This document shows positions 2,579 through 23,209 of a stretch of DNA of 64,000 nt, piece by piece; positions within the stretch are counted from its first letter, which is position 1; every line of letters starts with the position of its first letter. The DNA comes from Intestinibacillus sp. Marseille-P6563 (lineage in GTDB: Bacteria; Bacillota; Clostridia; Oscillospirales; Butyricicoccaceae). The notes under the pieces were generated by a model that was not told the origin of the DNA, ran no database searches, and saw only the letters and a program-made list of their open reading frames with translations. Where the stretch lies: assembly GCF_900604335.1 (NCBI RefSeq), contig NZ_UWOD01000001.1, positions 994,521 to 1,058,520 on the forward strand. The letters are read 5' to 3'. Both the position numbers and the translations under genes were made by a program.

Positions 2579-2607
2579 TTGACAAATCATACGACATTTT
2601 GTATATT
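2579..2607 (+). promoter_or_regulatory. Strong sigma-A promoter upstream of the secretion locus
   Basis: TTGACA (2579-2584) and TATATT (2602-2607) are separated by exactly 17 bp. It is the clearest promoter seen in this region and lies about 115 bp before the small XRE gene. The imperfect palindrome around TTAGCATTAGATGCTAATT just downstream could be an operator. It probably drives the XRE gene and perhaps the genes that follow. Confidence 0.6.
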
Positions 2608-2723
2608 ATTAGCATTAGATGCTAATTAGGGAACGATGAATTGCGATTGAAAGTCCGATACTCTATGATAAAAAGTTAGATAAAAATTGTTATATTATAC
2701 AGAAAGGATGTATAAACAACGAC

Positions 2724-3002
2724 TTGAATACCTTTGACAAGCTTGATCTAATGATGACGTTAACTACTGAACTACCTGTTTTAAGGGCACGTCTTGGAAT
2801 ATCTCAAGAAACAATAGCACAAAACATAGGCTTATCGAGGCAGACATATTGCGCAATAGAAAACGGAACAAGAAAAATGACATGGACAATTTTTATGGCT
2901 CTAGTAGCTTTTTTCGACTTGAATGAGGCTACATCAGTCATGCTTGACCAAATCCCGTCATTTATTGAATCTATACGAGAGATTTTGCGAGAGAATAAAT
3001 AA
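2724..3002 (+). CDS. Small XRE-family helix-turn-helix regulator
   Basis: This 92-residue protein is almost entirely a Cro/C1-type DNA-binding domain ('LRARLGISQETIAQNIGLS', 'RQTYCAIENGTRKMTW'), followed by one helix. A TTG start at 2724 follows GAAAGGATG with long spacing; ATG codons at 2751 and 2754 are alternatives. It is the first gene after the promoter at 2579 and 63 bp before the next gene, so it may regulate the secretion locus. Direct control is inference. Confidence 0.7.
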   Translation: MNTFDKLDLMMTLTTELPVLRARLGISQETIAQNIGLSRQTYCAIENGTRKMTWTIFMALVAFFDLNEATSVMLDQIPSFIESIREILRENK

Positions 3003-3065
3003 TTGTCTTAATCGGTTAATATCGACCGTTTAGGAATAGAACATTTATTATAGGAGGAATCAATC

Positions 3066-3536
3066 ATGGCAAAATCCGAATTTACCGGAAGAAGTAACAG
3101 CTACATCTTTGAGGATGCAGGCGGCATGCGGGATCAGCTTGAGCAGACCATCTTGAATGAGTTGCAGGCCAAGAAGTATCCTCTGAAGGCTACTATTTCT
3201 ACGCTGAAGTCCGGCAAGGGACTGGCAGGTGCATTGTTTGGAAGCAAGGAGCAGTGTGTTGTCATTACCATTGATGACGAAGCTCAGATTGCAATTTCCA
3301 ACACCACGGTTGGTACATATCTCTATGTGGAAGTGTACCTGATGGTTCAGCAGAAGCTCATTTCTTTTGCAGCCCTTTCTGCGGCTATCGGAGATGTCTT
3401 CAAGATGCAGTACCGGAACGCTGTGTTCTCTGCTGCTATCGAAGCAACCGAGTCTGCTTTTGCAAAGTTGGGTCTGAAGCAGTGCAATAGCGGTTACAAA
3501 GCAGATAAGAAAGAAACCAAGAGCGAGAACGGCTAA
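3066..3536 (+). CDS. Conserved hypothetical protein of the T7SS-like locus
   Basis: A soluble protein of 156 residues with no signal peptide or membrane segment. It starts at ATG after TAGGAGGAATCA. The middle is rich in beta strands ('CVVITIDDEAQIAIS', 'YLYVEVYLMV') and the C-terminus is helical and ends in a charged lysine-rich tail. I do not recognise the family. Its place at the head of the gene run, before the zinc-ribbon/TPR and SPFH genes, suggests a cytoplasmic accessory role, but nothing in the sequence shows a reaction. Confidence 0.6.
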   Translation: MAKSEFTGRSNSYIFEDAGGMRDQLEQTILNELQAKKYPLKATISTLKSGKGLAGALFGSKEQCVVITIDDEAQIAISNTTVGTYLYVEVYLMVQQKLISFAALSAAIGDVFKMQYRNAVFSAAIEATESAFAKLGLKQCNSGYKADKKETKSENG

Positions 3537-3554
3537 CAATTATCAAAAGATTAA

Positions 3555-3609
3555 AATTATGGACGGGATGAGATATGTTCATGAATGTTATCTCGTTCCG
3601 TCCATAATT
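3555..3609 (+). promoter_or_regulatory. Long stem-loop between secretion-locus genes
   Basis: Two 21-nt arms (3555-3575 and 3589-3609) are inverted repeats with only two mismatches, around a 13-nt loop. No T tract follows and the ribosome site GGGGAGG lies just after it. It could be an mRNA processing or attenuation structure that sets the level of downstream genes, or a protein-binding palindrome. Confidence 0.5.
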
Positions 3610-3629
3610 GTTGTGGGGAGGTTTTAAGA

Positions 3630-4466
3630 GTGGCAAAGATAAGTTTAATTTGCGAGCAATGCGGTGGTAACATCATTCTTGATGATTCCCACGAAATTGG
3701 AACCTGTGAAAATTGTTTTGCCCAGTTTGTTGTTAAGCAGGATCAAATCGTACAAAAGATTACACAGAATATTACCAAACACGTTTATGGGTATCAAGGA
3801 AAAGATGTGGAAGAATTATTAGCAGATGGATACAGATTACTTGACCTGGGGGATACTCGTACAGCAAATGCCAAATTTAGTCGTGCCATTGACATTGAGC
3901 CTGATTGTTGGAGTGCACACCTTGGATATGCCTCTACTGGTGGGAATCGTTCCGGATATTTATCTATGGTGCCTGAATACCGCAGAGCCTATAGCCTCGC
4001 TTCCACGGAGCAACAAGAAATCGATACTTTTGTTGATATGACTGGTTATCTTCCCGACAAGCATCTACGTTCTGCATTTGTTAGAGCTTTTAATATTGCT
4101 TCTAGCAAAGAACGTGTCAAGATCTTTAATCTTGTTTCTGGCGTTATCGGCTGTGATGAGTCTGAAATTGCCTCGTTGGCGGTAGATTTATGTCCAAATG
4201 ACTGGAGAGCACTTTTCGCAATGGCAAAATTCAGGCAAATTAGGGCAAGATGGTGTGAATTGGAAGGGAATTTCTTCACAGGGAAGCATTTACCTAAAGC
4301 AGCACAAGAAGTTGTGGACATTTTCATGAAAGCGTATCGCTCTGCAAAAAGCGAAAACGAACAAGCAAAACAAACGATTATCTCGTATGTAAATTCCCTT
4401 GCGCAAGATAATTCTTACAAGGTATTTACGAACACTTTGCTTTCTCAAATTCAAAGAGAAGGTTAA
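3630..4466 (+). CDS. Zinc-ribbon / TPR-type protein
   Basis: This 278-residue protein has a zinc ribbon at its N-terminus (CEQCGG and CENC, residues about 8-30). Helical repeats follow; the segment around 'GYRLLDLGDTRTANAKFSRAIDIEPDCWSAHLG' resembles a tetratricopeptide repeat. GTG at 3630 is chosen because GGGGAGG lies 9 bases before it; an upstream in-frame ATG at 3585 falls inside the preceding hairpin. It is 16 bp before the SPFH gene and so translationally linked to it. A scaffold or adaptor role at the secretion complex is plausible but unproven. Confidence 0.65.
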   Translation: MAKISLICEQCGGNIILDDSHEIGTCENCFAQFVVKQDQIVQKITQNITKHVYGYQGKDVEELLADGYRLLDLGDTRTANAKFSRAIDIEPDCWSAHLGYASTGGNRSGYLSMVPEYRRAYSLASTEQQEIDTFVDMTGYLPDKHLRSAFVRAFNIASSKERVKIFNLVSGVIGCDESEIASLAVDLCPNDWRALFAMAKFRQIRARWCELEGNFFTGKHLPKAAQEVVDIFMKAYRSAKSENEQAKQTIISYVNSLAQDNSYKVFTNTLLSQIQREG

Positions 4467-4482
4467 TTAAGGAGGGATTTGA

Positions 4483-5613
4483 ATGGCCATTATTGATAGA
4501 ATAAAATATGATGGACCAACCAATGGAGCGCAATGGCTAATTTATAAATGTCCCTCTGAAGAATTTGTCCTCGGCTCACAATTAATCGTCAATCAAGGGC
4601 AAGAAGCTTTGTTTTTCAAAGGTGGAGAGGCTCTTGACTTATTTGGCCCAGGTACGCATACATTGTCTACAGGCAATTTGCCGTTGTTAAAAAAAATAGT
4701 AAATTTGCCGTTCGGAGGCAAAACCCCATTTGCTGCTGAAGTTTACTACATAAACAAAACAGCTAATCTTAATATGAAATGGGGAACATCTACACCGATT
4801 CCCTTGGAAGATCCTAAATATGGTCTTATCTTAAACGTTGGTGCCCGTGGTCAGTACGGAATCACAATTACGGACTCTCGTTTGTTCGTATCTAAAATTA
4901 TCGGTGCTGTTCCGAATGGTACGACGACCAATCCATTGATTATTTTAAGATACTTCAATGGTTTGATTAACTCGAAAATCAAATCTGTTACTGCTTCTTA
5001 TATGATCCAAAAACAGATTTCCTTTCTCGAAATCTCTCAGTATTTGTCTGAATTGTCAGTAGCTTTCCAAGAAACTCTTAACGATGAATTTGAGCGTTTC
5101 GGTATTGAGCTGGTTAATTTCTACTGTGAGTCGATTGCACCAAAGCCTGAAGAATACGAAAAACTTCGTGGTTACAAGGAAGAATTAGCTCTCGGGCAGG
5201 GCTTCTACCAACAACGCCGTTCTCTCGATATTCTCGAAAAACTTGCAGAAAATCCGTCTGCCGGTGGCATTGCTAATGCAGGTATAGGCTTGGGCATGGG
5301 GCTAGGTGCCGCCGGACAATTTGGAAATGTATTTTCTGGAATAGGGCAAAATTTGAATACAACTCCAACCAACGATACTATAACTTGTCCAAAATGCGGT
5401 GCTACAAACAATACAACCATGAAATTCTGCGGTAGTTGCGGAAGCAAACTATCCGCTACTATTATATGTCCGCACTGTGGTAAAGAAGTCCCTGACGGCA
5501 TGAAGTTCTGCGGCGAATGCGGACAACCTATTGGCGCACAAAAATGTCCTTCCTGTGGTTTTGAAAATAAGCCTGGGATGAAGTTCTGTGGTAACTGCGG
5601 AGGAAAATTGTAA
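4483..5613 (+). CDS. SPFH-domain protein with three C-terminal zinc-ribbon pairs
   Basis: A protein of 376 residues. Residues about 30-240 resemble the SPFH (stomatin/prohibitin-like) family often annotated 'virion core protein' or YdjI-like ('LIVNQGQEALFFKGG', 'GARGQYGITITDSRLFV'). A glycine-rich linker follows (about 260-300). The last 75 residues carry three repeated zinc-ribbon units: CPKCG/CGSCG, CPHCG/CGECG and CPSCG/CGNCG, each with a 'MKFCG' motif. There is no clear membrane segment. Such proteins can form oligomeric rings or membrane platforms. The gene sits directly before the FtsK-type ATPase, which suggests an assembly or targeting role. The ribbons resemble those of the neighbouring zinc-ribbon proteins. 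Confidence 0.75.
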   Translation: MAIIDRIKYDGPTNGAQWLIYKCPSEEFVLGSQLIVNQGQEALFFKGGEALDLFGPGTHTLSTGNLPLLKKIVNLPFGGKTPFAAEVYYINKTANLNMKWGTSTPIPLEDPKYGLILNVGARGQYGITITDSRLFVSKIIGAVPNGTTTNPLIILRYFNGLINSKIKSVTASYMIQKQISFLEISQYLSELSVAFQETLNDEFERFGIELVNFYCESIAPKPEEYEKLRGYKEELALGQGFYQQRRSLDILEKLAENPSAGGIANAGIGLGMGLGAAGQFGNVFSGIGQNLNTTPTNDTITCPKCGATNNTTMKFCGSCGSKLSATIICPHCGKEVPDGMKFCGECGQPIGAQKCPSCGFENKPGMKFCGNCGGKL

Positions 5614-5639
5614 ACATTATTTATAGAGGTGGTGAAAAG

Positions 5640-8600
5640 ATGGCTAAATCCAAGAATAATTCGATGTCGGATTTCTTGGTAACGTTCTTCGTTGAAGATC
5701 GAGCAATTTCACGGATGCTGAGCGATGTCCTGAAAAACAGAAGTAATCATCTGTTTCTGGAAACTCTTGGACTTCCCACCGGCTTTGCTATTCCTTTTTC
5801 AAGGGAAGAAGGAGAGGCATCTGTCATTTATACTTTGAAACAAGACTACGACAATAACTATGAAGTAACGCTAAATGGTCATCCTTGCAATGACCGTGTG
5901 ATACATAGTGGAGACTATTTTGTATTTAAGAATAACGATAATAACAAAGTAGTTAAAACCCTGTTCATTGCCACCTCGGATATACAAGTAGGCTATAAAA
6001 AATACAAGCTGTCGAACGATACCAATATTTTCATAGGGCGTACTCCACTTAATGATATTTCGTATGACTTTAGTGACTTTGTTTCAAGAGAAAAACACGC
6101 AGCAATTCGTATCGACGGCAACGGGAACGCATTTATTGAGGATTTGAAACGAAGCGTAGGCATTTATGTAAATGGTCGCCTTACTCATTCACAGCAGCTG
6201 AAACCCTTTGATGAAGTTTTCATCATGGGGCTTTCAATCATTTACATGGGTGACTTCATAGCTGTCCGTAGCCTAAGGACTGAAAGTACGCAACCGTTGA
6301 TGACATCTTTTTTGACAAAAATCCCCATCGACGATACGCAAGAAAAGAAATATTTTGTCAGCACCCCTCGCATTCTGAAATCATTGGATAGTGACGAAGT
6401 TGAAATTGATGCACCCCCCAGCCCATTTACCGTAGATAAAACCCCCGCAATTCTAACTTTGGGGCCAAGCCTTACCATGTCCATGGTGATGTTGGCAAGT
6501 TTGGGAGTATCTGTTACAAACGCAATCAGTGGTGGTGAATTATCTACAATTGTTGCTAGTGGTATGATGGCAGTAGGTATGCTGTTAGGTTCGCTAATGT
6601 GGCCTTCTTTGCTTAGAAGTTATCAAAAAAGACGAACCCTGGCAGAAGAAGCTCACAGGAAAAGCAGGTATTCATCGTACATCGCTGACATTGAAAAAGG
6701 CTTAGTTGCTAAACGGGAACGTGCCGTTCGGCTTCTGAACGACTCGTTATGTCCTTCCCCTGAACTCCTTTGCTCTATGCTTGATAATGAAAGCAACAAA
6801 CTCCGTTTGTGGGAACGTTCCTATGAGGATGGTGACTTTCTTGCTATCCGTATGGGGTTAGGTAACAGACCTTTTGAAGTTAAATTAAAAATCCCAAAGC
6901 AAGGATTTCAGTTGTATGAGGACGAACTTCGCAATTTGCCGGCTGAGCTTTCAAAGAAGTACGGTATTTTAAGCAATGTACCTTTGACCATTGATATTCG
7001 CACTAACCATACAATTGGCGTTATCGGGAGTCAGAAAAATATCCGTACTATTCTTTATGAGACCATCTTGAATATCATTTCCCTTCATTCCTACGACGAA
7101 GTGAAGCTAGTGCTCGTTACTTCTCCAAAACAAGCACATGTATTTGATGATTTCAAGAATGTACCTCATATTTGGAGCAACGACAAAAAAATCAGATTTT
7201 TTTCTACCAATCCTGATGAGGTTCACTTCATTTTTAACATCATTGACGAAACGATTAAGGAACGTGAAGGGGCTGAGGGCCGAGATAATCCCATCGTCCC
7301 TCATTTTGTTGTGATTGTTACGGAGCCTCATTTAATTGAAAAAGAAGCTCTGCTCAGATACATGAATGATGCTGATAATCAAGTTGGCATTACTACCATT
7401 TTTGCATACGGCGATGTAACAAAGCTGCCCAAATCCTGCAAAACCATTATTCAAAGCGATGATACTCGCACGGGATACTACATAAAAAACAAAAATGCTA
7501 ACCGCTTTATCCCGTTTGCTCTTGATAGCATAGAAACAAGTCGCATTCGTTCTTTTGCAAATGAACTATCTCGATTGCCGATCAAAAGAGATTCTCGCTC
7601 TCTGGGCATCGTTGATCGAATCTCGTTCTTGCAAATGTACAAGGCAGGCAATGTTAGTGAGCTTGGTATTGAAAGTCATTGGGACAATGACAATTCCGCA
7701 AAATCGTTGGCTGCACCAATAGGTGTTATGGCAGGCGGTGAGGTATTTAGCCTGGATCTGCATGAAGCATATCATGGATGTCATGGTCTTGTTGCCGGCA
7801 CTACCGGTTCCGGTAAGAGTGAATTTTTGCAGGCATTTATCTTGTCACTGGCAATTAACTACAGTCCGAGAGAAGTTGCTTTCGTTCTGGTAGACTTCAA
7901 AGGTGGAGATATGGCAAGACCGTTTATGGCCAAGCCTTTTGCTCCAGCACTTCCACACCTGTCAGCAACAATTTCTAATTTGTCAGGGAACATTCTATAC
8001 CGTGCATTGGTTTCCTTGGAAGCGGAGATAAAATCTCGCCAACGCATTTTTAATGAAGCTGCAGCGGTACTTGGTGTGGATAAGCTGGACATCAACTCCT
8101 ACCACAAATATTACAAAGGAGGCCGTCTTGACACACCCCTACCACATCTCATCATTATTATTGACGAATTTGCACAGCTGAAAACACAGCAACCGGAATT
8201 TCTGGCTCAACTCATCAATGTGGCTCAGGTTGGCCGAAGTCTTGGAATCCATTTGATCCTGGCTACACAGAAGCCAAGCGGGATCGTTGATCCACAAATC
8301 ATGAGCAACTCCCGTTTCCGAGTTTGCTTGAAAGTAGCGGATAAGCAGGACAGCATTGACCTGATTAACAAGCCGGATGCTGCCATGATCAAAAACCCTG
8401 GTCGTCTGTATCTGCAGGTTGGTTATGATGAAATTTACGAGTGCATTCAATCTGGTTACAGCGGAGCCGATTATGTTCCAACAAAAACCTACATGCCTGA
8501 TGAAGAAATCACAGTGCAGATGACCGATAACACGGCAAACCCGATACACAGTGCCAAGATCGACCTTTCGGGAGGTAAATCTGATAAGACGCAGCTCGAA

Positions 8601-10271
8601 GCTGTTGTTGCTGAGATAGTTTCCCTCGGGCAGAAGAAGGGGCTTGCTGCTAAACCTTTGTGGTTGGATATGTTGCCGGAGAAGATTGCTTTGCATACAC
8701 TTAAAGTTGGCAAAAAGGGATTGTGTTCTGCAACCATTGGTTTGGTTGACTTTGTTCGTACTCAAGAGCAAAAACCGCTTAGCATAGACTTTGCTAAAAC
8801 CGGTCATGTTGGCCTGTATGGTGCAAGCGGCACAGGGAAGACAACATTCCTTCAAACCTTGGTTTATTCGATGGTATGTGGCTACCGTTATACTCCGGAA
8901 GAACTCAATCTGTATGCAATGGATTTTGGTGGTCGAAATCTGGGGTATCTTGCTGATCTGCCACATACCGGTGGTGTGGTCTTTGCGGATGATGAATCTA
9001 AACTCACAGAGCTAGCTTCTGTATTGCATGGCATCATTGATGAGCGAAAGCGCATTTTTTCTGACAACAATTGCGGGACATTTGCTGACTATCGTGCAAT
9101 TAGTAAGAAACCTTTGCCGGCAATCCTCGTGCTAATCGACAACTTCGCATCCTTCCGTGATCACTACATGGATATTGCGGATAGCTTTATCGACATTATC
9201 AGCTCTGGCAAGACGTTTGGTGTTTATTTTGTAATCACCGGGAGCACTAGAAACTCCATTTATTACAAGGTGACGGAGCACATTTCAACTTACTTCACCT
9301 TGAAGATGAATGACCCAAGCAATTACTTGGATATTCATAATATGCGTCCTCCGGTTACGCCAGAAGACATCAGTGGCCGTGGAATTACTGTTGTGAACAA
9401 AGAAATTGTGGAGTTTCAGACAGCTGTTGCATTTGATAGCGAAACCGAAGCCGAACGAGTTACGGCGATCACGCAATCCTACTGTGACCTTGCAGAAAAG
9501 TGGCACGGATACGAGCCGCTCCGGTTGGATAGCTCGGTGGACGGACCCGATGATTCATATGAGACCTCTATAAGCTACTATACTCCCCTCTCACGAAGCA
9601 ACCCGCCTGAATCAATCATTGACGACAGCAGGAATCTTGTGCTGGGCACTTCCAAATCAGGTGCCTTGACCTATGGCTTGACCCTGTCTGAGGATTACAA
9701 GGTCTGTGCTTGTGCGAGCAGTGCGGAGCAGCTAATGACATTCTACGGAGCGGTTCTCTCCAATGCTGCTCAGTACAGTAACAGGCATCTGATCTTTATC
9801 GATGATGACAGGCAGATCTTTGCGAGCATCGTAGAGGCGTGTCCTTCTTGTCAGTACATCAGCGGTTCCACTGCGCTGGACAGTTTTATCGAGGCGCTAA
9901 AGCCTGAACTCAACGCCCGCTTGGAGGAACCTGCCAAACAACATGAGCAGCTATTCATTGTTATCTCTGAGTTTAATGACTTTTTCAACATGATTACCGA
10001 TGAGCAGGCTGTTTTTATGCGAAAAGTTTTCCAATACATTGACTCTCCGCAATACGGAATTTGTTTCTTGTGCGGGTTCAATGTGAATGGGGAAAAGAGC
10101 AATGATCGGCTGTTTATGTCTTTGGTGGTCAATGCAGAAAACTATATTCTCTGCCCTAACTGTTATGAAACTGCTTCCGCCAAGATAGAAACTCTACCAC
10201 TTGTTTCGGATGTAAAGTCTCACAGTTGTTACTTTTGTCTTAAGGAAAAGAATGTTGAGATAAGGTGGTGA
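5640..10271 (+). CDS. essC: FHA-FtsK/SpoIIIE ATPase, type VII secretion motor (EssC-like)
   Basis: The protein has 1543 residues, close to EssC/YukBA length. An FHA domain lies at about 115-190 (GRT at 132-134, 'SREKHAAI'). Two hydrophobic segments lie at about 280-325. FtsK/SpoIIIE modules follow. The first has Walker A 'GTTGSGKS' (720-727) and Walker B 'IIIIDE' (D842, E843). The second has Walker A 'GASGTGKTT' (1061-1069) but a Walker B ending in Asp1167-Asn1168, lacking the glutamate. The third, near 1360, has a degenerate P-loop ('GTSKSGALT'). The family is the membrane motor that recognises WXG100 substrates. The FHA domain should bind phosphothreonine, which fits the kinase and phosphatase downstream. 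Its stop overlaps the ribosome site of the next gene. Confidence 0.92.
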   Translation: MAKSKNNSMSDFLVTFFVEDRAISRMLSDVLKNRSNHLFLETLGLPTGFAIPFSREEGEASVIYTLKQDYDNNYEVTLNGHPCNDRVIHSGDYFVFKNNDNNKVVKTLFIATSDIQVGYKKYKLSNDTNIFIGRTPLNDISYDFSDFVSREKHAAIRIDGNGNAFIEDLKRSVGIYVNGRLTHSQQLKPFDEVFIMGLSIIYMGDFIAVRSLRTESTQPLMTSFLTKIPIDDTQEKKYFVSTPRILKSLDSDEVEIDAPPSPFTVDKTPAILTLGPSLTMSMVMLASLGVSVTNAISGGELSTIVASGMMAVGMLLGSLMWPSLLRSYQKRRTLAEEAHRKSRYSSYIADIEKGLVAKRERAVRLLNDSLCPSPELLCSMLDNESNKLRLWERSYEDGDFLAIRMGLGNRPFEVKLKIPKQGFQLYEDELRNLPAELSKKYGILSNVPLTIDIRTNHTIGVIGSQKNIRTILYETILNIISLHSYDEVKLVLVTSPKQAHVFDDFKNVPHIWSNDKKIRFFSTNPDEVHFIFNIIDETIKEREGAEGRDNPIVPHFVVIVTEPHLIEKEALLRYMNDADNQVGITTIFAYGDVTKLPKSCKTIIQSDDTRTGYYIKNKNANRFIPFALDSIETSRIRSFANELSRLPIKRDSRSLGIVDRISFLQMYKAGNVSELGIESHWDNDNSAKSLAAPIGVMAGGEVFSLDLHEAYHGCHGLVAGTTGSGKSEFLQAFILSLAINYSPREVAFVLVDFKGGDMARPFMAKPFAPALPHLSATISNLSGNILYRALVSLEAEIKSRQRIFNEAAAVLGVDKLDINSYHKYYKGGRLDTPLPHLIIIIDEFAQLKTQQPEFLAQLINVAQVGRSLGIHLILATQKPSGIVDPQIMSNSRFRVCLKVADKQDSIDLINKPDAAMIKNPGRLYLQVGYDEIYECIQSGYSGADYVPTKTYMPDEEITVQMTDNTANPIHSAKIDLSGGKSDKTQLEAVVAEIVSLGQKKGLAAKPLWLDMLPEKIALHTLKVGKKGLCSATIGLVDFVRTQEQKPLSIDFAKTGHVGLYGASGTGKTTFLQTLVYSMVCGYRYTPEELNLYAMDFGGRNLGYLADLPHTGGVVFADDESKLTELASVLHGIIDERKRIFSDNNCGTFADYRAISKKPLPAILVLIDNFASFRDHYMDIADSFIDIISSGKTFGVYFVITGSTRNSIYYKVTEHISTYFTLKMNDPSNYLDIHNMRPPVTPEDISGRGITVVNKEIVEFQTAVAFDSETEAERVTAITQSYCDLAEKWHGYEPLRLDSSVDGPDDSYETSISYYTPLSRSNPPESIIDDSRNLVLGTSKSGALTYGLTLSEDYKVCACASSAEQLMTFYGAVLSNAAQYSNRHLIFIDDDRQIFASIVEACPSCQYISGSTALDSFIEALKPELNARLEEPAKQHEQLFIVISEFNDFFNMITDEQAVFMRKVFQYIDSPQYGICFLCGFNVNGEKSNDRLFMSLVVNAENYILCPNCYETASAKIETLPLVSDVKSHSCYFCLKEKNVEIRW

Positions 10272-10276
10272 GATTC

Positions 10277-10525
10277 GTGGAAAAAATATCTATCACAGTA
10301 GAGATACCTGCCTTAAATGGTACTTATGATTTCGTTGTTCCTAGCAATATGTCTATCCGAAATGTTCAGAATCTGATGATACGGATATTAAATTCAGAAT
10401 ATGGAATCTCAGATCAAAGCACCGATGCAATGCTGTTTGACAAAGAAGATAATAAAGCGTTACGTCTGGAATGCAGCTTTGCCCAGCTTGGTATCTCCGA
10501 TGGCGCCAAGCTACTACTGATTTAG
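10277..10525 (+). CDS. YukD/EsaB-like ubiquitin-fold protein
   Basis: A protein of 82 residues with the ubiquitin-like pattern of YukD/EsaB: strand ('KISITVEIPALNGTYDFVVP'), helix ('SIRNVQNLMIRIL'), short strands, and an ending 'LGISDGAKLLLI'. The GTG at 10277 is preferred because AAGGTGGTGA, which contains the ATPase stop codon, is correctly spaced before it; GTG codons at 10265 and 10268 are alternatives. YukD/EsaB proteins are small cytoplasmic parts of Firmicutes type VII systems and are not known to be conjugated to targets. Its place between the ATPase and the first WXG100 gene supports the call. Confidence 0.8.
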   Translation: MEKISITVEIPALNGTYDFVVPSNMSIRNVQNLMIRILNSEYGISDQSTDAMLFDKEDNKALRLECSFAQLGISDGAKLLLI

Positions 10526-10544
10526 CAGGAAGGAGATCTAGCCT

Positions 10545-11012: not shown

Positions 11013-12191
11013 TCAGGCTGCTGAGCGATAGGGTTGCTTGGATTTCTCCATGGCAAAGATAAGCCGCACCAGCTTCTTGGCAGCGTGGGAGATGGCAACA
11101 TTGTAGTGCTTACCCTCGGCCCTCTTTTTAGCGAGATAGGCGGCAAAGGTTGGATTCCAAAGACAGACATACTTAGTAGTATTGTAAAGAGCGTAGCGTA
11201 AGTATCGGGAACCTCGTTTCTCCATGTGCGGGTAGCAATTTTTGAGCTGTCCGGATTGGTAAGTAGACGGTGACATTCCGGCATAAGCCAACAGCTTGTC
11301 TGAGGAGTCGAAGCGAGAGAGATCCCCAACCTCTGCCAGGATCATGGCACCCATGCGGCAGCCAATACCTGGAATGGTGGTGATGGGAGAATGGATTTCC
11401 TCCATCATGGCCTCAATTTCTGCTTCAATCTCGTCAATCTCGGTATCTAATTCCTGGATGAGACGGATGGTGTGCTGTAATTCCAAGGACTTGGCAGGCA
11501 TTTTAGAACCAATAGAGTTTCGTGCCGCATCCCGAACTGCCACAGCCATATCCCGCTTATAGCGTCCTTTGGAGGCATTCTCCAGAAGGGATTTGAGCCT
11601 TGTCAGGTGTGCCTTGGCAATCTGTTTGGCACCTGGAAACTCTTCCAGCAGAGCATAGACAGTCGCCAAATGGAGAGAGGACACCAGCTTCTCCAGTTCA
11701 GGGAAGAGAATGCAAACCAGTCTGGAAATTGAGCTTTTCAGTTTTGCTCGTTCTTTTACCTTGTCAAAACGGTATCTGGTGAGTGACTTTAGTTCCTCAT
11801 TGTGATATGCTGCATTCGTGTAGGGTTTGAGGCCCACATCGGATAACAGCATAGCAGCAATGGTTCGAGCATCTACATGGTCGGTCTTGGTCTTTCGCAG
11901 GCTGAGACTTTTCCGGTAGAGGTTCGTGCGTAAGGGCTTCAAGACATAGGTGGCCAGACCGTTGTCAAGAAGAAATCCAAGCAGATTGTAGCTGTAATGT
12001 CCCGTAGCCTCAAGCCCTACCTTTATTTTGTCCTGGGATGCGGTGCAGACCTGGATTTTCTCCAGCAGTGTGTGAAATCCATCCATATTGTTGGAAATGG
12101 TAAACACATCTGCAAGCACTTCACCCTCCGAACTCTGAATAAAGCAGTCGTGCTTGTCCTTTGCCACATCAATACCAACAGAAACTACCAT
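11013..12191 (-). CDS. IS110-family transposase (DEDD recombinase)
   Basis: A protein of 392 residues. The N-terminal RuvC-like DEDD domain starts with 'VSVGIDVAKDKHDCFI' and carries further acidic residues in 'KVGLEATGHYSYNL' and 'KTDHVDARTIA'. The C-terminal Tnp20 domain contains 'ITTIPGIG', 'MILAEVGDLSRF', 'LLAYAGMSPS' and the conserved serine region. ATG 12191 is chosen because TTGGAGG lies 8 bases before it. Length and both domains appear complete, so the element may be active. IS110 enzymes use an element-encoded bridge RNA to choose targets. Confidence 0.92.
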   Translation of the reverse strand: MVVSVGIDVAKDKHDCFIQSSEGEVLADVFTISNNMDGFHTLLEKIQVCTASQDKIKVGLEATGHYSYNLLGFLLDNGLATYVLKPLRTNLYRKSLSLRKTKTDHVDARTIAAMLLSDVGLKPYTNAAYHNEELKSLTRYRFDKVKERAKLKSSISRLVCILFPELEKLVSSLHLATVYALLEEFPGAKQIAKAHLTRLKSLLENASKGRYKRDMAVAVRDAARNSIGSKMPAKSLELQHTIRLIQELDTEIDEIEAEIEAMMEEIHSPITTIPGIGCRMGAMILAEVGDLSRFDSSDKLLAYAGMSPSTYQSGQLKNCYPHMEKRGSRYLRYALYNTTKYVCLWNPTFAAYLAKKRAEGKHYNVAISHAAKKLVRLIFAMEKSKQPYRSAA

Positions 12192-12303
12192 TTCTAAAAC
12201 CTCCAACGGTAAATTTGTAATGCTGTTCCACAGAACACTTTGCTTTTGTAACCTTGTTCCACATAAACCGTCTGGCGGTATTTAACTGATTAACAAAACT
12301 GCA

Positions 12304-12393
12304 AAGGGCTGTGGTTGGAACCTTTCAGGAACCATCTTGTGGTAGGAGAATCGCACCAATCCACAGCATCCCTTACAGTGTAGCACAGCCCTT
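12304..12393 (-). ncRNA. Candidate IS110 bridge RNA region
   Basis: AAGGGCTGTG at 12304-12313 and CACAGCCCTT at 12384-12393 are a perfect 10-bp inverted repeat enclosing 70 nt that contain further short complementary arms (TGGTT/AACCA). The segment lies in the 5' non-coding end of the IS110 element, where IS110-group elements encode the bridge RNA that pairs with target and donor DNA. The position is from knowledge of the family and the fold is seen. The identity is inference. Confidence 0.35.
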
Positions 12394-12441
12394 GGAGAGG
12401 GGCCTTAAAAACTACTACTCTATAATACAAGGAGAACTACT

Positions 12442-12753
12442 ATGGCATCCACAATTTTTGATGTGACCCCTGAAGAACTCGAAGCATCTGCAAGCAAAAT
12501 CGAGGGCAAAACTAGTGAATTTACCAAGGCGTACAACAGCATTTATACTGCGGTGTCCGATCTGCGTGTAACCTACAAAGGTGAAGCAAGCGACACTTTC
12601 AACCAGAGAATTGAGGGCTATAAGAACGATTTCTCCGCAGCAGAAAAAGCACTGAAAAATTATGTTCAGTTCCTCCGTGAGTATGCCGCCAAGATGAAGA
12701 GCACTGAGAACGAAATCAAGAGCAAGGCAAGCGCACTTAGCGTCGGCAAATAA
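12442..12753 (+). CDS. WXG100-like protein with YKG turn
   Basis: A helix-turn-helix hairpin protein of 103 residues. The turn reads 'VTYKGEASDTFNQRI', so the usual tryptophan is replaced by tyrosine while the glycine and the A-x-x-F spacing are kept. The long second helix is rich in Lys, Ala and Glu. The ribosome site AAGGAGAACTACT precedes ATG. The next WXG100-size gene is 35 bp on. The family is WXG100/ESAT-6 and the protein is a likely substrate or partner of the upstream ATPase. Confidence 0.8.
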   Translation: MASTIFDVTPEELEASASKIEGKTSEFTKAYNSIYTAVSDLRVTYKGEASDTFNQRIEGYKNDFSAAEKALKNYVQFLREYAAKMKSTENEIKSKASALSVGK

Positions 12754-12788
12754 TTCAACATTATCACTTCGAAAGGAGATTATTAACT

Positions 12789-13094
12789 ATGGCACAAGTA
12801 GTAGTAGATTCCAGCGTTATGCGTGATAAATCCAAGACCCTCGAAAATGCAGCTGTAACAATCCAGTCTCTGTATGCAGAAATGCTTCAGGAGGTTACTA
12901 CAACTGCTAATAAAATGAAGGGTACCACAATCGAGACAGAGAAAAAGCAGTTTGCTGGTATGCAGAATACATTTGATACCATTGTTAAAGACATGAAGGC
13001 ATATAGCACTTTCCTTACCCAGGCCGCTGAGAGTTATGAAGCTGCTGAACGTGAAGGCACCCAAAAAGCCCAGGATCAGGGAAAGATTTTCTGA
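12789..13094 (+). CDS. Divergent WXG100-like helical protein
   Basis: A 101-residue protein predicted almost wholly helical. The mid-protein turn reads 'NKMKGTTIETEKKQF', giving M-K-G in place of W-x-G. The spacing to the following phenylalanine is retained and the tail is charged ('AAEREGTQKAQDQGK'). AAAGGAGATTATTAACT precedes the start. Position in the array and size support a WXG100 call. It may form heterodimers with a neighbour, which is inference. Confidence 0.7.
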   Translation: MAQVVVDSSVMRDKSKTLENAAVTIQSLYAEMLQEVTTTANKMKGTTIETEKKQFAGMQNTFDTIVKDMKAYSTFLTQAAESYEAAEREGTQKAQDQGKIF

Positions 13095-13111
13095 TTTTTC
13101 AAAAGAAAAAA

Positions 13112-13157
13112 ATCGGCTATCCCCAGTAGAGCGAAGTGCTCTGCTGGGGAAACCGAT
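13112..13157 (+). promoter_or_regulatory. GC-rich stem-loop before the cargo-like gene
   Basis: CCCCAGTAGAGC pairs with GCTCTGCTGGGG (one mismatch) around GAAGT, extended by ATCGG (13112-13116) and CCGAT (13153-13157). No T tract follows; instead the ribosome site AAAGGAGG lies a few bases on. It may stabilise or end part of the upstream mRNA so that small substrates are made in excess over downstream proteins. Confidence 0.6.
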
Positions 13158-13176
13158 GGAAAGGAGGTTGTGATGT

Positions 13177-14352
13177 ATGCCAAGAATTTATGTTGAGTTT
13201 GCTCGCCTCAACCAGATTGGAAATAATTGCAAAACAATAGCATCACGAATTGATACCATCCAATCCGATTTTCAAAATACAATCCAGCAACTTGACTGGG
13301 ACATTCGTTTTGATTCAAATATAAATAGCACGGCCATGCAGCTTGCAAGAAAGCTCGAACAATATTCAAGGGCATTAGAAGCTTATCAGCGATTTATCGA
13401 GGATGCTCGCAATGAATATGGCAAGCTCGACGAGTACAAGAAGCTCAATTTAGAAGACTATATTTCTGTTGCTCCAATCGATCCTAACAAATTTATTATT
13501 CTTGGGCCTGGTGGACAATTTCATTTGGATTGGGATAGTATTTTCAAAGATATAGTTATCACAAAACCTTATGTATTTCCAGGGCTGCTATCTCTGATTT
13601 CACCTATAACAAGTTTGCTTTATCTTACCAGTGGCATTCATACAGGGAATACACCTTCATTCTTTGACTACTCTCGTACCCCGTCGGCAAGTGCAACTGC
13701 CAACTGGTTAGGTTATGAACTGTCTGACGACAATCCAGGCGTAACAGCTTGGGTTGGAAAGGCAGGTGCAGAAGCACAAAATGAATGGGGTTATGCTGGT
13801 GTCAATGCATATCTGGGCAAAGGCGAAGCCGCTGCCAAGGCCGATGCTGGCATTATGAAAACAACAACCAAAAAAGAATACAAAGACGGTAAATGGGTTG
13901 AAAAAACCAGGACGGATTTCATTACCGCCGAAGCCGGTGCAAGTGCTAGTGTTTCTGCATTAGCTGGTGACGCTGAAGCCGGTTTGGGAAGTGATATGCT
14001 CGGAGTTGAGGGAAAAGCTGAAGGTACTGTTGGCACAGCTAAAGCTGAAGCCAAGGGAAAGTTTTCTGTTAGTGAAGATGGTGTTAATGCCAATGTTAAA
14101 GGCGAAGCAATGGTTGCCGCCGTTGAAGGTGAAGCATCTGGAACCATCAATATTCTGGGCTTAGAGATAACCGGAAAAGTCGGTGGCTATGCTGGCGCAG
14201 TTGGCGTTGAAGGAAAAGTCGGCATCGAAGATAATAAGTTCGTATTGGAAGGCGGTGCTGCCGCTTTGATCGGTGGTTCAGCTGGTATTGAAATCGGCTT
14301 CAACGATGACGGATGGGATAACTTTGTTGACTTTATCGTATTTTGGGATTGA
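13177..14352 (+). CDS. Putative type VII cargo protein with Ala/Gly-rich C-terminal region
   Basis: A protein of 391 residues. The first about 95 residues are helical with a WXG/LXG-like hairpin look ('FARLNQIGNNCKTIASRIDTIQ', 'LDWDIRF', 'LEQYSRALEAYQRFIED'). A short hydrophobic stretch follows at about 130-150. From about 195 to the end there is a low-complexity series of Ala/Gly/Glu-rich strands ('AEAGASASVSALAGDAEAG', 'VEGKAEGTVGTAKAEAKG'). The N-terminus suggests export by the adjacent motor. The repetitive tail resembles amphipathic strand repeats and could contact membranes or a surface. No toxin motif is recognised. AAAGGAGGTTGTGATGT precedes ATG. Confidence 0.6.
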   Translation: MPRIYVEFARLNQIGNNCKTIASRIDTIQSDFQNTIQQLDWDIRFDSNINSTAMQLARKLEQYSRALEAYQRFIEDARNEYGKLDEYKKLNLEDYISVAPIDPNKFIILGPGGQFHLDWDSIFKDIVITKPYVFPGLLSLISPITSLLYLTSGIHTGNTPSFFDYSRTPSASATANWLGYELSDDNPGVTAWVGKAGAEAQNEWGYAGVNAYLGKGEAAAKADAGIMKTTTKKEYKDGKWVEKTRTDFITAEAGASASVSALAGDAEAGLGSDMLGVEGKAEGTVGTAKAEAKGKFSVSEDGVNANVKGEAMVAAVEGEASGTINILGLEITGKVGGYAGAVGVEGKVGIEDNKFVLEGGAAALIGGSAGIEIGFNDDGWDNFVDFIVFWD

Positions 14353-14368
14353 TTATAAGAGGTGACAT

Positions 14369-14620
14369 ATGAGCATGAAATCTTTTAGATATGAGTTCAC
14401 CGCTAAAGAATTAACGTATTTCTTATTCAAAAAGAAATCGTGTCCCAAATGCGGTGGAAATATGAAGAAAGAAAAATGTTGTGAAACTGTAGACGGCTCC
14501 GTGTTTAATACAAATTCGGTTCCACTTTATATCCAGGGCCGCCAAGTAAAGCATTATTTTTACCGTTTTACCTGCGAAAAATGCGGTTCTGAATTCACCT
14601 TATCTGAATTGTCGAAATAA
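14369..14620 (+). CDS. Small zinc-ribbon protein
   Basis: An 83-residue protein with two Cys pairs, CPKCGG (about residues 25-30) and CEKCGS (about 69-74), separated by about 38 residues. This should bind one zinc ion in a ribbon fold. No membrane or export signal is seen. AGAGGTGACAT precedes the start, and it lies 16 bp after the cargo-like gene and 14 bp before the DUF4176-type gene. A chaperone or immunity role for the cargo protein is possible by position only. Confidence 0.6.
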   Translation: MSMKSFRYEFTAKELTYFLFKKKSCPKCGGNMKKEKCCETVDGSVFNTNSVPLYIQGRQVKHYFYRFTCEKCGSEFTLSELSK

Positions 14621-14634
14621 GAAAGGAGATTGAA

Positions 14635-14901
14635 ATGAAGAAATTTCTGCCTATCGGCTCAGTTGTATTATTAAAAGAGAGCCAGAAACGAATTATGATT
14701 GTTGGAGTAAAGCAGAAGCAAGCAAACTCCGACAAAGTATGGGATTATAGCGCCTGCCTGTACCCTGAAGGAATCATCGATCCAGATAAACTGTTCCTAT
14801 TTGATGCTGAACAGATTGAGCGTTTGTATTTTGTTGGACTTCAGGACGGAGAAGGATTAGCTTTCTTGAATAAGTTAAATCACCTGGATGATAATGCATA
14901 A
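14635..14901 (+). CDS. DUF4176-type small protein
   Basis: This 88-residue protein begins 'MKKFLPIGSVVLLKESQKRIMIVG', the pattern I associate with the DUF4176 family, followed by 'WDYSACLYPEGII' and 'LFDAEQIERLYFVG'. The family is found beside type VII secretion genes in Firmicutes and is thought to help handle substrates. The recognition is from memory, not from a search. GAAAGGAGATTGAA precedes the ATG. Confidence 0.7.
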   Translation: MKKFLPIGSVVLLKESQKRIMIVGVKQKQANSDKVWDYSACLYPEGIIDPDKLFLFDAEQIERLYFVGLQDGEGLAFLNKLNHLDDNA

Positions 14902-14939
14902 CCCCGCAACCAATCATCCGGAAACGAGAGGTTTAGCTT

Positions 14940-15746
14940 ATGGACAAGCCTGTCTGTTCCTCCCACATTGGAAAACGTCCAAACCATGAAGATAATTTTT
15001 TGATTGATGGCTCTTATCTGTCATCTGACATACAAAAGCGAATGTCAGATAAGCGCTGCTATTTCGTTAATGGTGCATCTTCCTCGAACATACATCTTTA
15101 TGCTGTTAGCGATGGTATGGGCGGTCATAATGCAGGAGAAGTTGCCAGCCGAATATGTGTGGAGAGACTTTCGTTAGCATATAACGAACTGCAGCAATCC
15201 CGTTCGCTCAAAGAAGCGGTGACCTATCTTCAAGCAATCATTGCCGAAATCAATGATACTGTCTGTAACATGAGTCGCAAGCAACCTGAATTGAAAGGTA
15301 TGGGGGCAACTCTTGTCTTATTGATTGCATATAAAGACGAATATGCCCTCTTAAATATTGGCGATAGTCGTGCATATTATTTTAGCGACAGCACAATTAC
15401 ACAAATTACAAAAGACCATACCGAAGGACAACGAATGCTTGACCTCGGTCTATTAACGAGGAAAGAACTCTCTGGTTTTCCTGCACGCAAAAACTTGAAC
15501 CGTTATATAGGTTATAATCAAAACGGCTATGTTTTACAAGCAGATGAATACTATCCTGTTTTAGAAAACGGAGTAGTTCTGCTATGTAGTGATGGCATTT
15601 CAGATTTTCTTTCAAATGATCAAATCGTCGAAATACTAAGTGCGGCAAGCAACCTTGAAATTGCTGTAAGTCAGCTGGTTGACAAGGCCGTGTCAGCACT
15701 TAATGCAGATAATGCAACGGCTATACTGATACCACTTAGGAGGTGA
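14940..15746 (+). CDS. PP2C-family Ser/Thr protein phosphatase
   Basis: A protein of 268 residues with the PP2C motifs in order: 'GKRPNHEDNFL' (metal Asp), 'AVSDGMGGHNAGEVAS', 'GMGATLVLLIA', 'LNIGDSRAYYF', 'ITKDHT', 'LLCSDGISDFLS' and 'DNATAILI'. All metal-binding aspartates are present, so it should be an active Mn/Mg-dependent phosphatase. Its stop lies in the ribosome site of the kinase gene 4 bp on, so the two are co-translated. It should reverse the kinase, and the FHA domain of the secretion ATPase is a likely reader of that phosphorylation. Confidence 0.9.
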   Translation: MDKPVCSSHIGKRPNHEDNFLIDGSYLSSDIQKRMSDKRCYFVNGASSSNIHLYAVSDGMGGHNAGEVASRICVERLSLAYNELQQSRSLKEAVTYLQAIIAEINDTVCNMSRKQPELKGMGATLVLLIAYKDEYALLNIGDSRAYYFSDSTITQITKDHTEGQRMLDLGLLTRKELSGFPARKNLNRYIGYNQNGYVLQADEYYPVLENGVVLLCSDGISDFLSNDQIVEILSAASNLEIAVSQLVDKAVSALNADNATAILIPLRR

Positions 15747-15750
15747 TTCT

Positions 15751-17661
15751 GTGGCGCAAACAAACTTAATTGGCAAAAATATTCTCGGATATACTGTCAT
15801 CGAAAAACTCGGTTCAGGTGCATTTGGAACGGTGTACAAAGTTGTTAAATCAAATGCAGCAGGCCAGTATGTTCGTGCGCTAAAGCACATCACAATTCCA
15901 ACAGAAAAGCAATACAACTCCGTATTAAGCTCTATGGGTGGTGATGTTTCTAAAGCCGACAATTATTTTTCGCAAATGCTCAATAATATCGTTTCGGAAA
16001 TCAGAATCCTAAATGATTTATCTGAAAAGGGCGTACAGCATATCGTCAGATATTATGAAAATGATATACTTGTTACTGACTCCCCAAGGCGATATGATAT
16101 TTTTATTCTTATGGAATATCTGACTCCTCTTGAAGATTTCATCCGGGGTACAGATTTCCTTGTGCGTGATGTTCTCAGGTTAGGATTAGATGTTCTATAT
16201 GGACTTCAATCATGTCACGATAACGGCGTAATTCATCGAGATATAAAAGATGACAACATTTTCGTATCTGATAAAGGCGAATATAAAATTGGCGATTTTG
16301 GCGTTTCAAAAGTTTTGAAAGACAGCTCAAAAGCTGAGTCCTTAAAGGGTACACCTAATTTCCTCGCACCAGAAGTCTATTTAGGCAAGGAAGGATATAC
16401 AAAATCCGTTGACCTTTACTCCCTGGGTATTGTGCTCTACAGGCTCTTAAATTACAGCAGAAATCCATTCCTGCCTCGCTTCCCTGAACAATATTTTGCT
16501 CAGGATGAAGATGCTGCTTTTGAAGAAAGAATGAGTGGCAAGACTCCGGATTTTCCGGCCCTTGGTGGCGAGGCTATCGGGCGTGTGATTGTGAAATCTA
16601 TTTCCAATAGCACAGAAAGATTCCAAACTGCTGATGAGTTTATAAACGCCTTGGAGCAAGCAATCGACCAAACACCGCCCGAGATATTTAATGAAAAAAT
16701 TAAATTCGGAGTATCCTCTTCTGTAGAGTCCACAGAAGAACCAAAAGCAAAACAATATGGCTCTACTTTGGGTGAAACAGTCCCTGATTCTGCACCAGAA
16801 GAATACTCTGAAGACGAGCATAACACTTCTATCAATAGGCATTTGTTTGAAAGCATTGGAGAAGTTCCGTCCACCGACATCCCAGCAGTTGATCCTGTTG
16901 CAAGCCACGAACACGATCACAGACAAGAAAGCACATCAGGTACATCCCAGCAAAATATAAACAGACGAGTTGTGGATTTCGTCCCCCCAGATATAAGTGA
17001 GCCAGAGGAGCCTGCTGCACTGGACAAGAAAGTGATGAACAAATTTGTGTTCTTCATTCCTGTGATTATACTTTTTGTAGGTGTGATTGCATACTTTATT
17101 GTGGTTCCTAACATCTATGGACGGGTCGTATCTTTTGTGGATTGGCTTTTCACCGATCCTCAGAATATCATATCTACACTTCGTGATCCGAATGCTGTTT
17201 TGCCGCAGGTCAACAGCATCATTGGCATGAGAATCTTTTGGTGGGTATGGTTGGCTGGACTGATTACTTCCCTATTTTTTGTTGGTAAGCAACTTCAGTC
17301 AAAGCCCGAACCTAATGCTCCCAATGCTATCTTAACAAAGAAAGAGCCTTATTTGATGATTCAGGATGTCATTGATGCTCTGAAGCAAGTAAAGGCTCAC
17401 AACTATAGTAAACAGCTCGACTCTTTGATTTATTCTGCAAAGAAGCTTGAAGAAAAATTGTCCGTGGAGAGCGACTTCGGATACGGAAAAAATGTTGTTA
17501 TCAGTTGTGAAAATAACATAGCACGACAGATTCAGTTTCTTGTAGACATCGCCCCATGCGTTGAAAATGGCGATTTTGAGGAAAACATAAAAGCCATGAA
17601 CACAGCAATAATGAACATCAACTCTTTGCTTCGTAGACGAATAGAGCTCAAGAAACGATAA
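15751..17661 (+). CDS. Membrane-anchored Ser/Thr protein kinase
   Basis: A protein of 636 residues. The kinase domain spans about 10-305: glycine loop 'LGSGAFGTVYKV', catalytic lysine in 'ALKHI', 'VIHRDIKDDN', 'IGDFGVS' and 'LAPEVY'. A disordered acidic linker (about 310-425) joins two transmembrane segments near 430-455 and 490-510, then a helical cytoplasmic tail. It lacks the PASTA repeats of PknB/PrkC. GTG start after AGGAGGTGATTCT. It ends the secretion-locus run and with the phosphatase forms a phospho-switch, probably acting on the FHA protein. The link to secretion is inference from context. Confidence 0.88.
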   Translation: MAQTNLIGKNILGYTVIEKLGSGAFGTVYKVVKSNAAGQYVRALKHITIPTEKQYNSVLSSMGGDVSKADNYFSQMLNNIVSEIRILNDLSEKGVQHIVRYYENDILVTDSPRRYDIFILMEYLTPLEDFIRGTDFLVRDVLRLGLDVLYGLQSCHDNGVIHRDIKDDNIFVSDKGEYKIGDFGVSKVLKDSSKAESLKGTPNFLAPEVYLGKEGYTKSVDLYSLGIVLYRLLNYSRNPFLPRFPEQYFAQDEDAAFEERMSGKTPDFPALGGEAIGRVIVKSISNSTERFQTADEFINALEQAIDQTPPEIFNEKIKFGVSSSVESTEEPKAKQYGSTLGETVPDSAPEEYSEDEHNTSINRHLFESIGEVPSTDIPAVDPVASHEHDHRQESTSGTSQQNINRRVVDFVPPDISEPEEPAALDKKVMNKFVFFIPVIILFVGVIAYFIVVPNIYGRVVSFVDWLFTDPQNIISTLRDPNAVLPQVNSIIGMRIFWWVWLAGLITSLFFVGKQLQSKPEPNAPNAILTKKEPYLMIQDVIDALKQVKAHNYSKQLDSLIYSAKKLEEKLSVESDFGYGKNVVISCENNIARQIQFLVDIAPCVENGDFEENIKAMNTAIMNINSLLRRRIELKKR

Positions 17662-23197: not shown

Positions 23198-23209
23198 GAG
23201 GATCATTTT

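What the first reader, a model, noticed from the sequence alone, without database searches (positions are those of the whole stretch)
2579..17661. Type VII-like locus without EssA/EssB/EsaA but with kinase, phosphatase and SPFH/zinc-ribbon genes
The FHA-FtsK ATPase, YukD-like protein and three WXG100-size proteins are clear, yet I find no membrane partners EssA, EssB/YukC or EsaA/YueB. Instead the locus has a PP2C/STK pair, an SPFH protein with six zinc-ribbon halves and a zinc-ribbon/TPR protein. The phospho-switch and the FHA domain suggest control by threonine phosphorylation. It may be a distinct type VII variant in gut Clostridia.
Basis: partly seen in the sequence, partly recalled or inferred. 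Interest (0 to 1): 0.55.

Follow-up and report, generated by a model that had tools for sequence, protein, structure and literature searches.

The report
Kinase-and-SPFH type VII secretion locus
A bacterium carries an unusual version of the type VII protein export machine that lacks the usual membrane partners and instead comes with its own protein kinase, phosphatase and membrane-scaffold protein; it is a rare new variant of a known machine, seen so far in two genomes.

Summary
Window 2579-17702 is a one-direction gene run with a true EssC-type ATPase (978.7 bits against a cut-off of 778.4), YukD, three WXG100 proteins, an LXG-like candidate effector, a PP2C phosphatase, an intact transmembrane Ser/Thr kinase, an SPFH protein with six CxxC halves and a zinc-ribbon protein whose TPR call is weak. 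EssB, EsaA and EssA were not found anywhere in the complete host genome, which has one EssC. The same gene set, in the same order, occurs in a genome of another family (L060). Most of those genes have saturated or near-saturated synonymous divergence and low dN, so the cluster is old and selected; its middle block recombined recently.

T7SS variants without EssA/EssB/EsaA but with kinase and phosphatase were published in 2024 (T7SSc-T7SSj, PMC11217815), so that part is known. This gene set matches none of the published subtypes I could test, and the SPFH, zinc-ribbon/TPR and 156-aa genes are not mentioned in the main text I searched. The FHA phospho-switch is only half supported: the FHA asparagine is a valine. 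An IS110 element splits the window's copy. Verdict: new variant of a known kind.

The parts
2579..2607 (+). promoter-like site (TTGACA-17-TATATT)
   Evidence: 11 of 12 consensus matches; 52 such sites found against 33.2 expected, so weak evidence
2724..3002 (+). small HTH protein, possible local regulator (not in L060)
   Evidence: a relative lies directly upstream of EssC in L059
3066..3536 (+). 156-aa protein of no known family, alpha/beta
   Evidence: no family; 2 of 345 genomes; model pLDDT 66
3630..4466 (+). zinc-ribbon protein with weak TPR match (open frame from 3585; L060 start corresponds to 3630)
4483..5613 (+). SPFH (Band_7_1) protein with three C-terminal zinc ribbons, YdjI-like architecture
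5640..10271 (+). EssC-type ATPase with FHA domain
10265..10525 (+). YukD/EsaB-like ubiquitin-fold protein
   Evidence: PF08817 30.6 bits
10545..10847 (+). WXG100 protein 1 (WKG motif), probable TsxA
11013..12206 (-). IS110-family transposase inserted in the run (not part of the system)
   Evidence: L060 has 36 bp between the two WXG genes here
12442..12753 (+). WXG100 protein 2
12789..13094 (+). WXG100 protein 3
13177..14352 (+). LXG-like protein, candidate secreted effector with variable C-terminus
   Evidence: N-terminus shared with two L060 proteins, C-termini not
14369..14620 (+). 83-aa zinc-ribbon protein, possible immunity or partner gene
14635..14901 (+). DUF4176 protein, T7SS-associated
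   Evidence: PF13780 99.4 bits; role unknown (PMC9600955)
14940..15746 (+). PP2C-family protein phosphatase
15751..17661 (+). Ser/Thr kinase with intact HRDIKDDN and DFG, one clear and one borderline transmembrane segment, helical C-terminus
17683..17702 (+). terminator-like hairpin after the kinase

Best explanation
This is a distinct subtype of type VII secretion system within the kinase/phosphatase-bearing group, with its own core set: 156-aa protein, zinc-ribbon(/TPR) protein, SPFH-zinc-ribbon protein, FHA-EssC, YukD, WXG100 proteins, PP2C and a transmembrane Ser/Thr kinase. Shown by sequence: the parts, their conservation as a unit in two families, and the absence of recognisable EssA, EssB and EsaA. 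Inferred: EssC drives export of WXG100 and LXG-like proteins; the transmembrane kinase takes the place of EssB (whose cytoplasmic domain is a pseudokinase that binds the FHA region of the ATPase in B. subtilis) as the membrane hub docked on EssC; PP2C reverses its phosphorylations, so assembly or firing is gated; the SPFH-zinc-ribbon protein, helped by the zinc-ribbon and 156-aa proteins, is a dedicated inner-leaflet scaffold for assembly, as FloA is for the S. aureus system; the variable C-terminal half of EssC selects the local substrates.
For: EssC equivalog score. EssB, EsaA, EssA and PspA each 0 in the complete own genome, single EssC. Same gene order in L060, another family. p156, WXG1 and STK have saturated dS; WXG2, WXG3 and PP2C have dS 2.6-2.8; all six have dN 0.07-0.24, so the cluster is old and under purifying selection. 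In 104 loci plus the window, SPFH and zinc-ribbon/TPR models match only window and L060. EssC is an isolated branch (100/100, length 1.7; length 1.3). Kinase motifs intact, transmembrane segment, kinase fold. YukC pseudokinase binds the FHA region of YukB (PMC9600267 passages); FloA binds EssB and aids assembly (PMC5718613 passages). No kinase in any of 11 EssB loci and no EssB in any of 26 kinase loci, of 103. EssC identity drops from about residue 961 (92.9% to 68.3%), as in S. aureus EssC variants (PMC5994694).
Against: Only two members known. SPFH and zinc-ribbon/TPR sit in a recently recombined block (dS 0.012 and 0.071), so their own age in the cluster is not shown. FHA Asn is Val and Thr is Ile, so phosphothreonine binding may be weak or absent. 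Profile comparison of EssB with kinases is weak (probability 9.5, E 0.0034, 48 columns). Kinase-EssB exclusion is marginal (hypergeometric 0.03 for 103 loci, 0.06 for the 75 with 5 kb on both sides) and not corrected for relatedness. IS110 splits the window's copy and may uncouple downstream genes. No secretion shown. Structure models of the 156-aa protein and of the kinase C-terminus are low confidence.
Confidence: 0.55

Rival explanations
1. It is not a separate subtype but a reduced or diverged T7SSe/T7SSj-type system that lost its TsxI, TsxJ, TsxH and TsxK parts; the SPFH block is an accessory.
For: Kinase, PP2C, FHA-EssC, YukD and paired WXG proteins are shared with T7SSe (PMC11217815); in the 97-row tree the branch joins the group that also holds an Atopobiaceae EssC (L077) and other kinase loci with 96 support.
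Against: Isolated long EssC branch, 28-31% identity to eight other EssCs; no DUF6382-FHA protein and no large extracellular protein in the run or in L060, and none found with DUF6382 in the genome, while the same model rings in L044 of this order; kinase C-terminus has no match outside L060.
Confidence: 0.25
2. The SPFH, zinc-ribbon and 156-aa genes are an independent membrane-stress module that happens to sit upstream of a kinase-type T7SS.
For: The SPFH protein has the architecture of B. subtilis YdjI/YdjL, which serves PspA (PMC8581546, PMC11237479); SPFH relatives occur without EssC in nine loci looked at.
Against: No PspA in the host genome while 9 of 14 control genomes ring; 16-bp and 26-bp spacing between zinc-ribbon, SPFH and EssC genes; order kept in a second family; zinc-ribbon and 156-aa genes not found apart from this EssC.
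Confidence: 0.15
3. The window's copy is decaying: IS110 split the operon and IS elements flank it, so it no longer secretes.
For: IS110 transposase on the opposite strand in the middle of the run; transposase genes downstream.
Against: All frames open, kinase and ATPase motifs intact; dN/dS far below 1 between the two loci where it could be computed, although that measures the long shared past and not the time since the insertion.
Confidence: 0.15

Closest known systems
T7SSe / T7SSd / T7SSj (Garrett, Higginson and Palmer 2024, PMC11217815)
   Same: FHA-bearing EssC, WXG100 proteins, membrane kinase; YukD and PPM phosphatase in e and j; no EssA/EssB/EsaA
   Different: No DUF6382-FHA protein (TsxJ), no large extracellular TsxI; different kinase C-terminus; adds SPFH, zinc-ribbon(/TPR) and 156-aa genes; FHA motif only partly kept
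T7SSb of Bacillus and Staphylococcus (EssC/EssB/EsaA/EssA)
   Same: EssC passes the T7_EssCb_Firm cut-off; YukD; WXG100; LXG-like candidate effector and DUF4176 gene
   Different: EssB, EsaA and EssA not found in the genome; active-type kinase instead of pseudokinase
T7SSf (PMC11217815)
   Same: FHA-EssC, YukD, PP2C
   Different: T7SSf has no kinase and has TsfJ and a TadZ-like ATPase; loci of this kind are in the same order (L044) and are clearly apart
YdjI/YdjL SPFH proteins of the pspA-ydjGHI operon (PMC8581546, PMC11237479)
   Same: SPFH domain followed by C-terminal zinc ribbons, no transmembrane segment above the scan's cut-off
   Different: No PspA in the genome; sits in a T7SS operon
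S. aureus FloA (PMC5718613)
   Same: SPFH protein that aids T7SS assembly
   Different: FloA is a general flotillin that binds EssB (that it is encoded outside the T7SS locus is recalled); here the SPFH gene lies in the operon and there is no EssB

Membership tests
Type VII secretion system (general) | EssC/EccC-type FtsK ATPase | tested here: met
   TIGR03928 978.7 bits, cut-off 778.4
Type VII secretion system (general) | WXG100 protein gene beside it | tested here: met
   three PF06013 matches over cut-off
Type VII secretion system (general) | secretion of WXG100 proteins | not testable with these tools
   needs culture work
T7SSb | EssB/YukC | tested here: not met
   PF10140: 0 matches in own complete genome; B. 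subtilis control rings
T7SSb | EsaA | tested here: not met
   TIGR03929: 0 matches at E 0.1
T7SSb | EssA | tested here: not met
   PF10661: 0 matches at E 1; short divergent family, so less sure
T7SSc | EssC without FHA | tested here: not met
   FHA at residues 131-193, 36.9 bits, cut-off 20.7
T7SSe | kinase, PPM phosphatase, YukD, two WXG100 | tested here: met
T7SSe | TseJ (DUF6382 plus FHA) | tested here: not met
   no such domain in the run; PF19909 0 in own genome (none of the 14 controls rang, but the model rings in L044)
T7SSe | TseI, large extracellular Ig-like protein at the locus | tested here: not met
   apart from EssC no protein over 640 aa in the run; rest of genome not searched
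T7SSe | conserved phosphothreonine motif in EssC FHA | tested here: inconclusive
   Arg134, Ser149 and His153 kept; Asn and Thr of NGT replaced by Val and Ile
T7SSe | TseH and TseK small membrane proteins | tested here: inconclusive
   none seen in the run, but short frames could be missed
T7SSe | EssC falls in the TseC clade | not tested
   published accessions are in supplements I could not open; nearest available trees are
T7SSj | kinase with TPR C-terminus, TsjI, TsjJ | tested here: not met
   no TPR in the kinase; TsjI and TsjJ as for T7SSe
T7SSf | TadZ-like AAA+ protein and TsfJ, no kinase | tested here: not met
   kinase present, the others absent from the run
YdjI-type SPFH | Band_7_1 domain with C-terminal zinc ribbons | tested here: met
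   PF13421 133 bits, zinc-ribbon models, six CxxC
YdjI-type SPFH | PspA partner | tested here: not met
   PF04012: 0 in own genome, 9 of 14 controls ring

The most novel reading that the evidence does not exclude
A self-scaffolded, kinase-gated T7SS: an active transmembrane Hanks-type kinase does the docking job that EssB's pseudokinase does elsewhere, with a captured PspA-type SPFH-zinc-ribbon protein and two new proteins as a dedicated assembly platform, and no gene in the operon for an envelope-spanning conduit.
Probability: 0.4. Interest if true: 0.65.

Novelty: new variant of a known kind. Interest (0 to 1): 0.42.

Why it matters
EssB is a dead kinase that binds FHA domains which, in T7SSb, have lost phosphothreonine binding; why the machine is built on a kinase fold and an FHA fold is open. 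This locus has a kinase with intact motifs, a phosphatase and a half-kept FHA motif side by side, with no EssB, so it lets one test whether kinase-FHA docking came first and lost its chemistry later. It also puts an SPFH scaffold inside a T7SS operon, which would make the role of flotillin-like proteins in T7SS assembly directly testable. That only two genomes have it limits the weight.

Tried and rejected
EssB hidden elsewhere in the genome: not supported by whole-genome family search. The kinase as a sequence-level EssB homologue: hhalign gives only probability 9.5, with the catalytic loops in register; not claimed. I first suspected that the 344-352-aa gene before EssC in L042, L044, L046, L047 and L179 was a diverged EssB; Pfam on L044 shows AAA_31 and, beside it, a DUF6382-FHA protein and an Ig-like protein, that is, T7SSf-like (only L044 and the 352-aa gene of L090 were scanned).

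156-aa protein: no Pfam, NCBIfam, PADLOC or PDB sequence match. Single-sequence model pLDDT 66 (five models 33.7 to 66.0). Foldseek best is the BamC N-terminal domain (E 3.2e-4, TM 0.32 by query, rmsd 11.9); VIA-align best Z 8.3, tied among KA1 domains of SAD kinases and phosphoglucomutase C-terminal domains. No fold claimed. Kinase model: domain good, residues 321-470 and most of the C-terminus under pLDDT 50; Foldseek lists only ordinary protein kinases in its top 50, so it does not test EssB.

Mobile copies: plasmids hold no EssC over 60% identity (408 records, all below), no zinc-ribbon/TPR protein, no near DNA; viral contigs gave no relative. PADLOC hits of the kinase are generic kinase matches. 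My ORF picker dropped the window's 156-aa gene in favour of an antisense frame (1 hit instead of 2).

Dropped before counts: of the 80 loci, the analysis used L064-L100 and 19 of the other 43, chosen by hand, plus L032-L060 and L164-L182 (104 in all); 103 records including the window had an EssC match; 75 of these have 5 kb on both sides. The tree left out L038 and L040 as partial (28 rows); the tree kept EssCs of 1000 aa or more (97 rows).
Full report
Observation. The gene run at 2579-17702 is as described. In order: promoter-like site, small HTH protein, 156-aa protein, zinc-ribbon protein, SPFH protein, EssC, YukD, WXG100, [IS110 transposase on the other strand], WXG100, WXG100, LXG-like protein, 83-aa zinc-ribbon protein, DUF4176, PP2C, kinase, terminator-like hairpin. 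Apart from the IS110 gap of 1594 bases, gaps between neighbours run from -7 to 93 bases. EssC passes the curated EssC cut-off (978.7 against 778.4 bits). The TPR label of the zinc-ribbon protein rests on matches below cut-off.

Missing partners. In the host genome (3.28 Mb, 11 contigs, 100% complete) EssB, EsaA and EssA models find nothing, while B. subtilis rings over the cut-off as control. There is one EssC; the second match (98.6 bits, 901-aa frame) is probably FtsK. PspA is also absent while 9 of 14 controls ring, so the SPFH protein has no PspA to serve.

Second member. Of 394 genomes of the order, 28 have an EssC; of 300 genomes of the family of G098, 20; of 87 of the window's own family, 3. 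Among the EssC loci examined, only G098 (L060) carries this set: 156-aa 71%, zinc-ribbon 99.3%, SPFH 99.5%, EssC 83%, YukD 71%, PP2C 68%, kinase 75%, with the three WXG genes contiguous. Apart from G098's own, the other 22 EssC matches are 31-43% identical over the matched stretch. In 104 loci plus the window, SPFH and zinc-ribbon models match only these two. The 156-aa protein was found in 2 of 345 genomes; the zinc-ribbon protein strongly in 2 of 391, with one weak partial match; SPFH relatives in 134 of 345, the nine nearest outside these two at 39-49%. In nine loci of such relatives no EssC, kinase, PP2C, zinc-ribbon/TPR or 156-aa match lies within seven genes.

Age and selection. Between window and L060 the 156-aa, WXG1 and kinase genes have saturated dS; WXG2, WXG3 and PP2C have dS 2.6-2.8; dN of these six is 0.07-0.24. 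Zinc-ribbon and SPFH genes have dS 0.071 and 0.012, and EssC codons 1-960 have dS 0.41, while the rest of EssC is saturated. So an old, selected cluster has had its middle block overwritten recently by recombination. DNA matching in L060 begins at window 3028, so the HTH gene is not shared.

Substrate side. EssC identity falls from 92.9% (1-960) to 68.3% (961-end), lowest in the block from 1261 (33%), and the LXG-like proteins share N-termini but not C-termini between the loci. S. aureus EssC variants diverge in the second and third ATPase domains together with their substrates, and EssC sets specificity (PMC5994694, passages). The same logic probably holds here (inference).

Kinase, FHA, phosphatase. 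The kinase has HRDIKDDN and DFG, a clear transmembrane segment near 434-452 and a second, borderline one near 493-511; AlphaFold gives a kinase fold, two long helices and a helical C-terminus, the last two at low confidence. Its C-terminus matches only L060 among the collected loci. In the FHA, Arg134, Ser149 and His153 are kept; N-G-T reads V-G-I in both members, while 6 of the 8 other EssCs aligned have N-G-T and the other two read N-G-L and N-N-T. Which residues contact phosphothreonine is recalled. In T7SSb the YukC pseudokinase binds the FHA region of YukB, and the authors infer that this does not need phosphorylation (PMC9600267, passages). Docking of the kinase on EssC is therefore likelier than a strict phosphothreonine switch; both are inferences. 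Among 103 EssC loci, 11 have EssB and 26 a kinase-fold gene, none both (hypergeometric 0.03, or 0.06 for the 75 well-flanked loci; not corrected for relatedness).

SPFH. FloA of S. aureus binds EssB and promotes assembly (PMC5718613, passages). SPFH-zinc-ribbon proteins of the ydj operon chaperone PspA at the membrane (PMC8581546 and PMC11237479, passages). An SPFH gene 26 bases before EssC, in a genome without PspA, is best read as a dedicated scaffold (inference).

Comparison with what is known. PMC11217815 (I read abstract, Methods, Results parts 1 and 2 of 3, and passages; no supplements or figures) names T7SSc-T7SSj, with kinases, PPM phosphatases and FHA. Its main text has no occurrence of the words SPFH, zinc ribbon or TPR, although T7SSj's kinase is said to have a tetratricopeptide domain. 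Searches for such a system elsewhere listed nothing else that uses the T7SSc-j names, and no title or abstract start listed describes SPFH within a T7SS operon; the library lacks most subscription papers and holds no bioRxiv preprints of its own. The window fits none of the subtypes by the features tested: FHA present (not c), no DUF6382-FHA protein (not e, f, j), kinase present (not f), no large extracellular protein at the locus (not d, e, j). Subtypes g, h and i were compared only by their description. T7SSf-like loci in the same order (L044) show that the DUF6382 model works here.

Verdict. A real, rare variant; not the first T7SS without EssB/EsaA; mechanism plausible and untested. My confidence is about 0.75 that it is a T7SS distinct in gene content from the published list, and about 0.4 for the full mechanistic model (kinase as hub, SPFH as scaffold).

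Noticed in passing
window 11013-12206: IS110-family transposase inserted between WXG100 genes 1 and 2; L060 lacks it. It may be polar on the downstream effector, phosphatase and kinase genes.
   Followed up: partly
window 3028-9457 and L060 8660-15087: Mosaic conservation: zinc-ribbon, SPFH and first 100 EssC codons about 98-99.6% identical in DNA between two families while flanks are saturated, a sign of recent recombination or transfer.
   Followed up: yes
window 18883-19451 and L060 1-553: Related transposase genes (84.7% DNA identity) lie just downstream of both loci, so the cluster may have moved with insertion sequences.
   Followed up: no
window 23153-35523: Region with excisionase-like HTH, C5-methylase, Fic, DUF6017, DUF3801, ParB and RepA_N genes next to a tRNA-Arg: looks like an integrative element. 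Whether the T7SS belongs to it is untested.
   Followed up: partly
L049, L051, L053, L058, L075: Kinase-fold membrane proteins beside EssC in which my scan found no HRD or DFG motif: likely pseudokinases in loci without a recognised EssB, possible intermediates between kinase and EssB.
   Followed up: no
L044, 1-12431: A T7SSf-like locus of this order also encodes an 1838-aa Ig-like protein and a DUF6382-FHA protein beside EssC; the Ig-like protein is not listed for T7SSf in the parts of the paper I read.
   Followed up: partly
L070: EssC locus in a MAG labelled Deltaproteobacteria that pairs with an EssC of the window's order (L166) in the tree; probably a binning error or a transfer.
   Followed up: no
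L059, 12569-12982: Relative of the window's HTH protein (E 2.2e-13) directly upstream of EssC in an otherwise different locus; may be a T7SS regulator.
   Followed up: no
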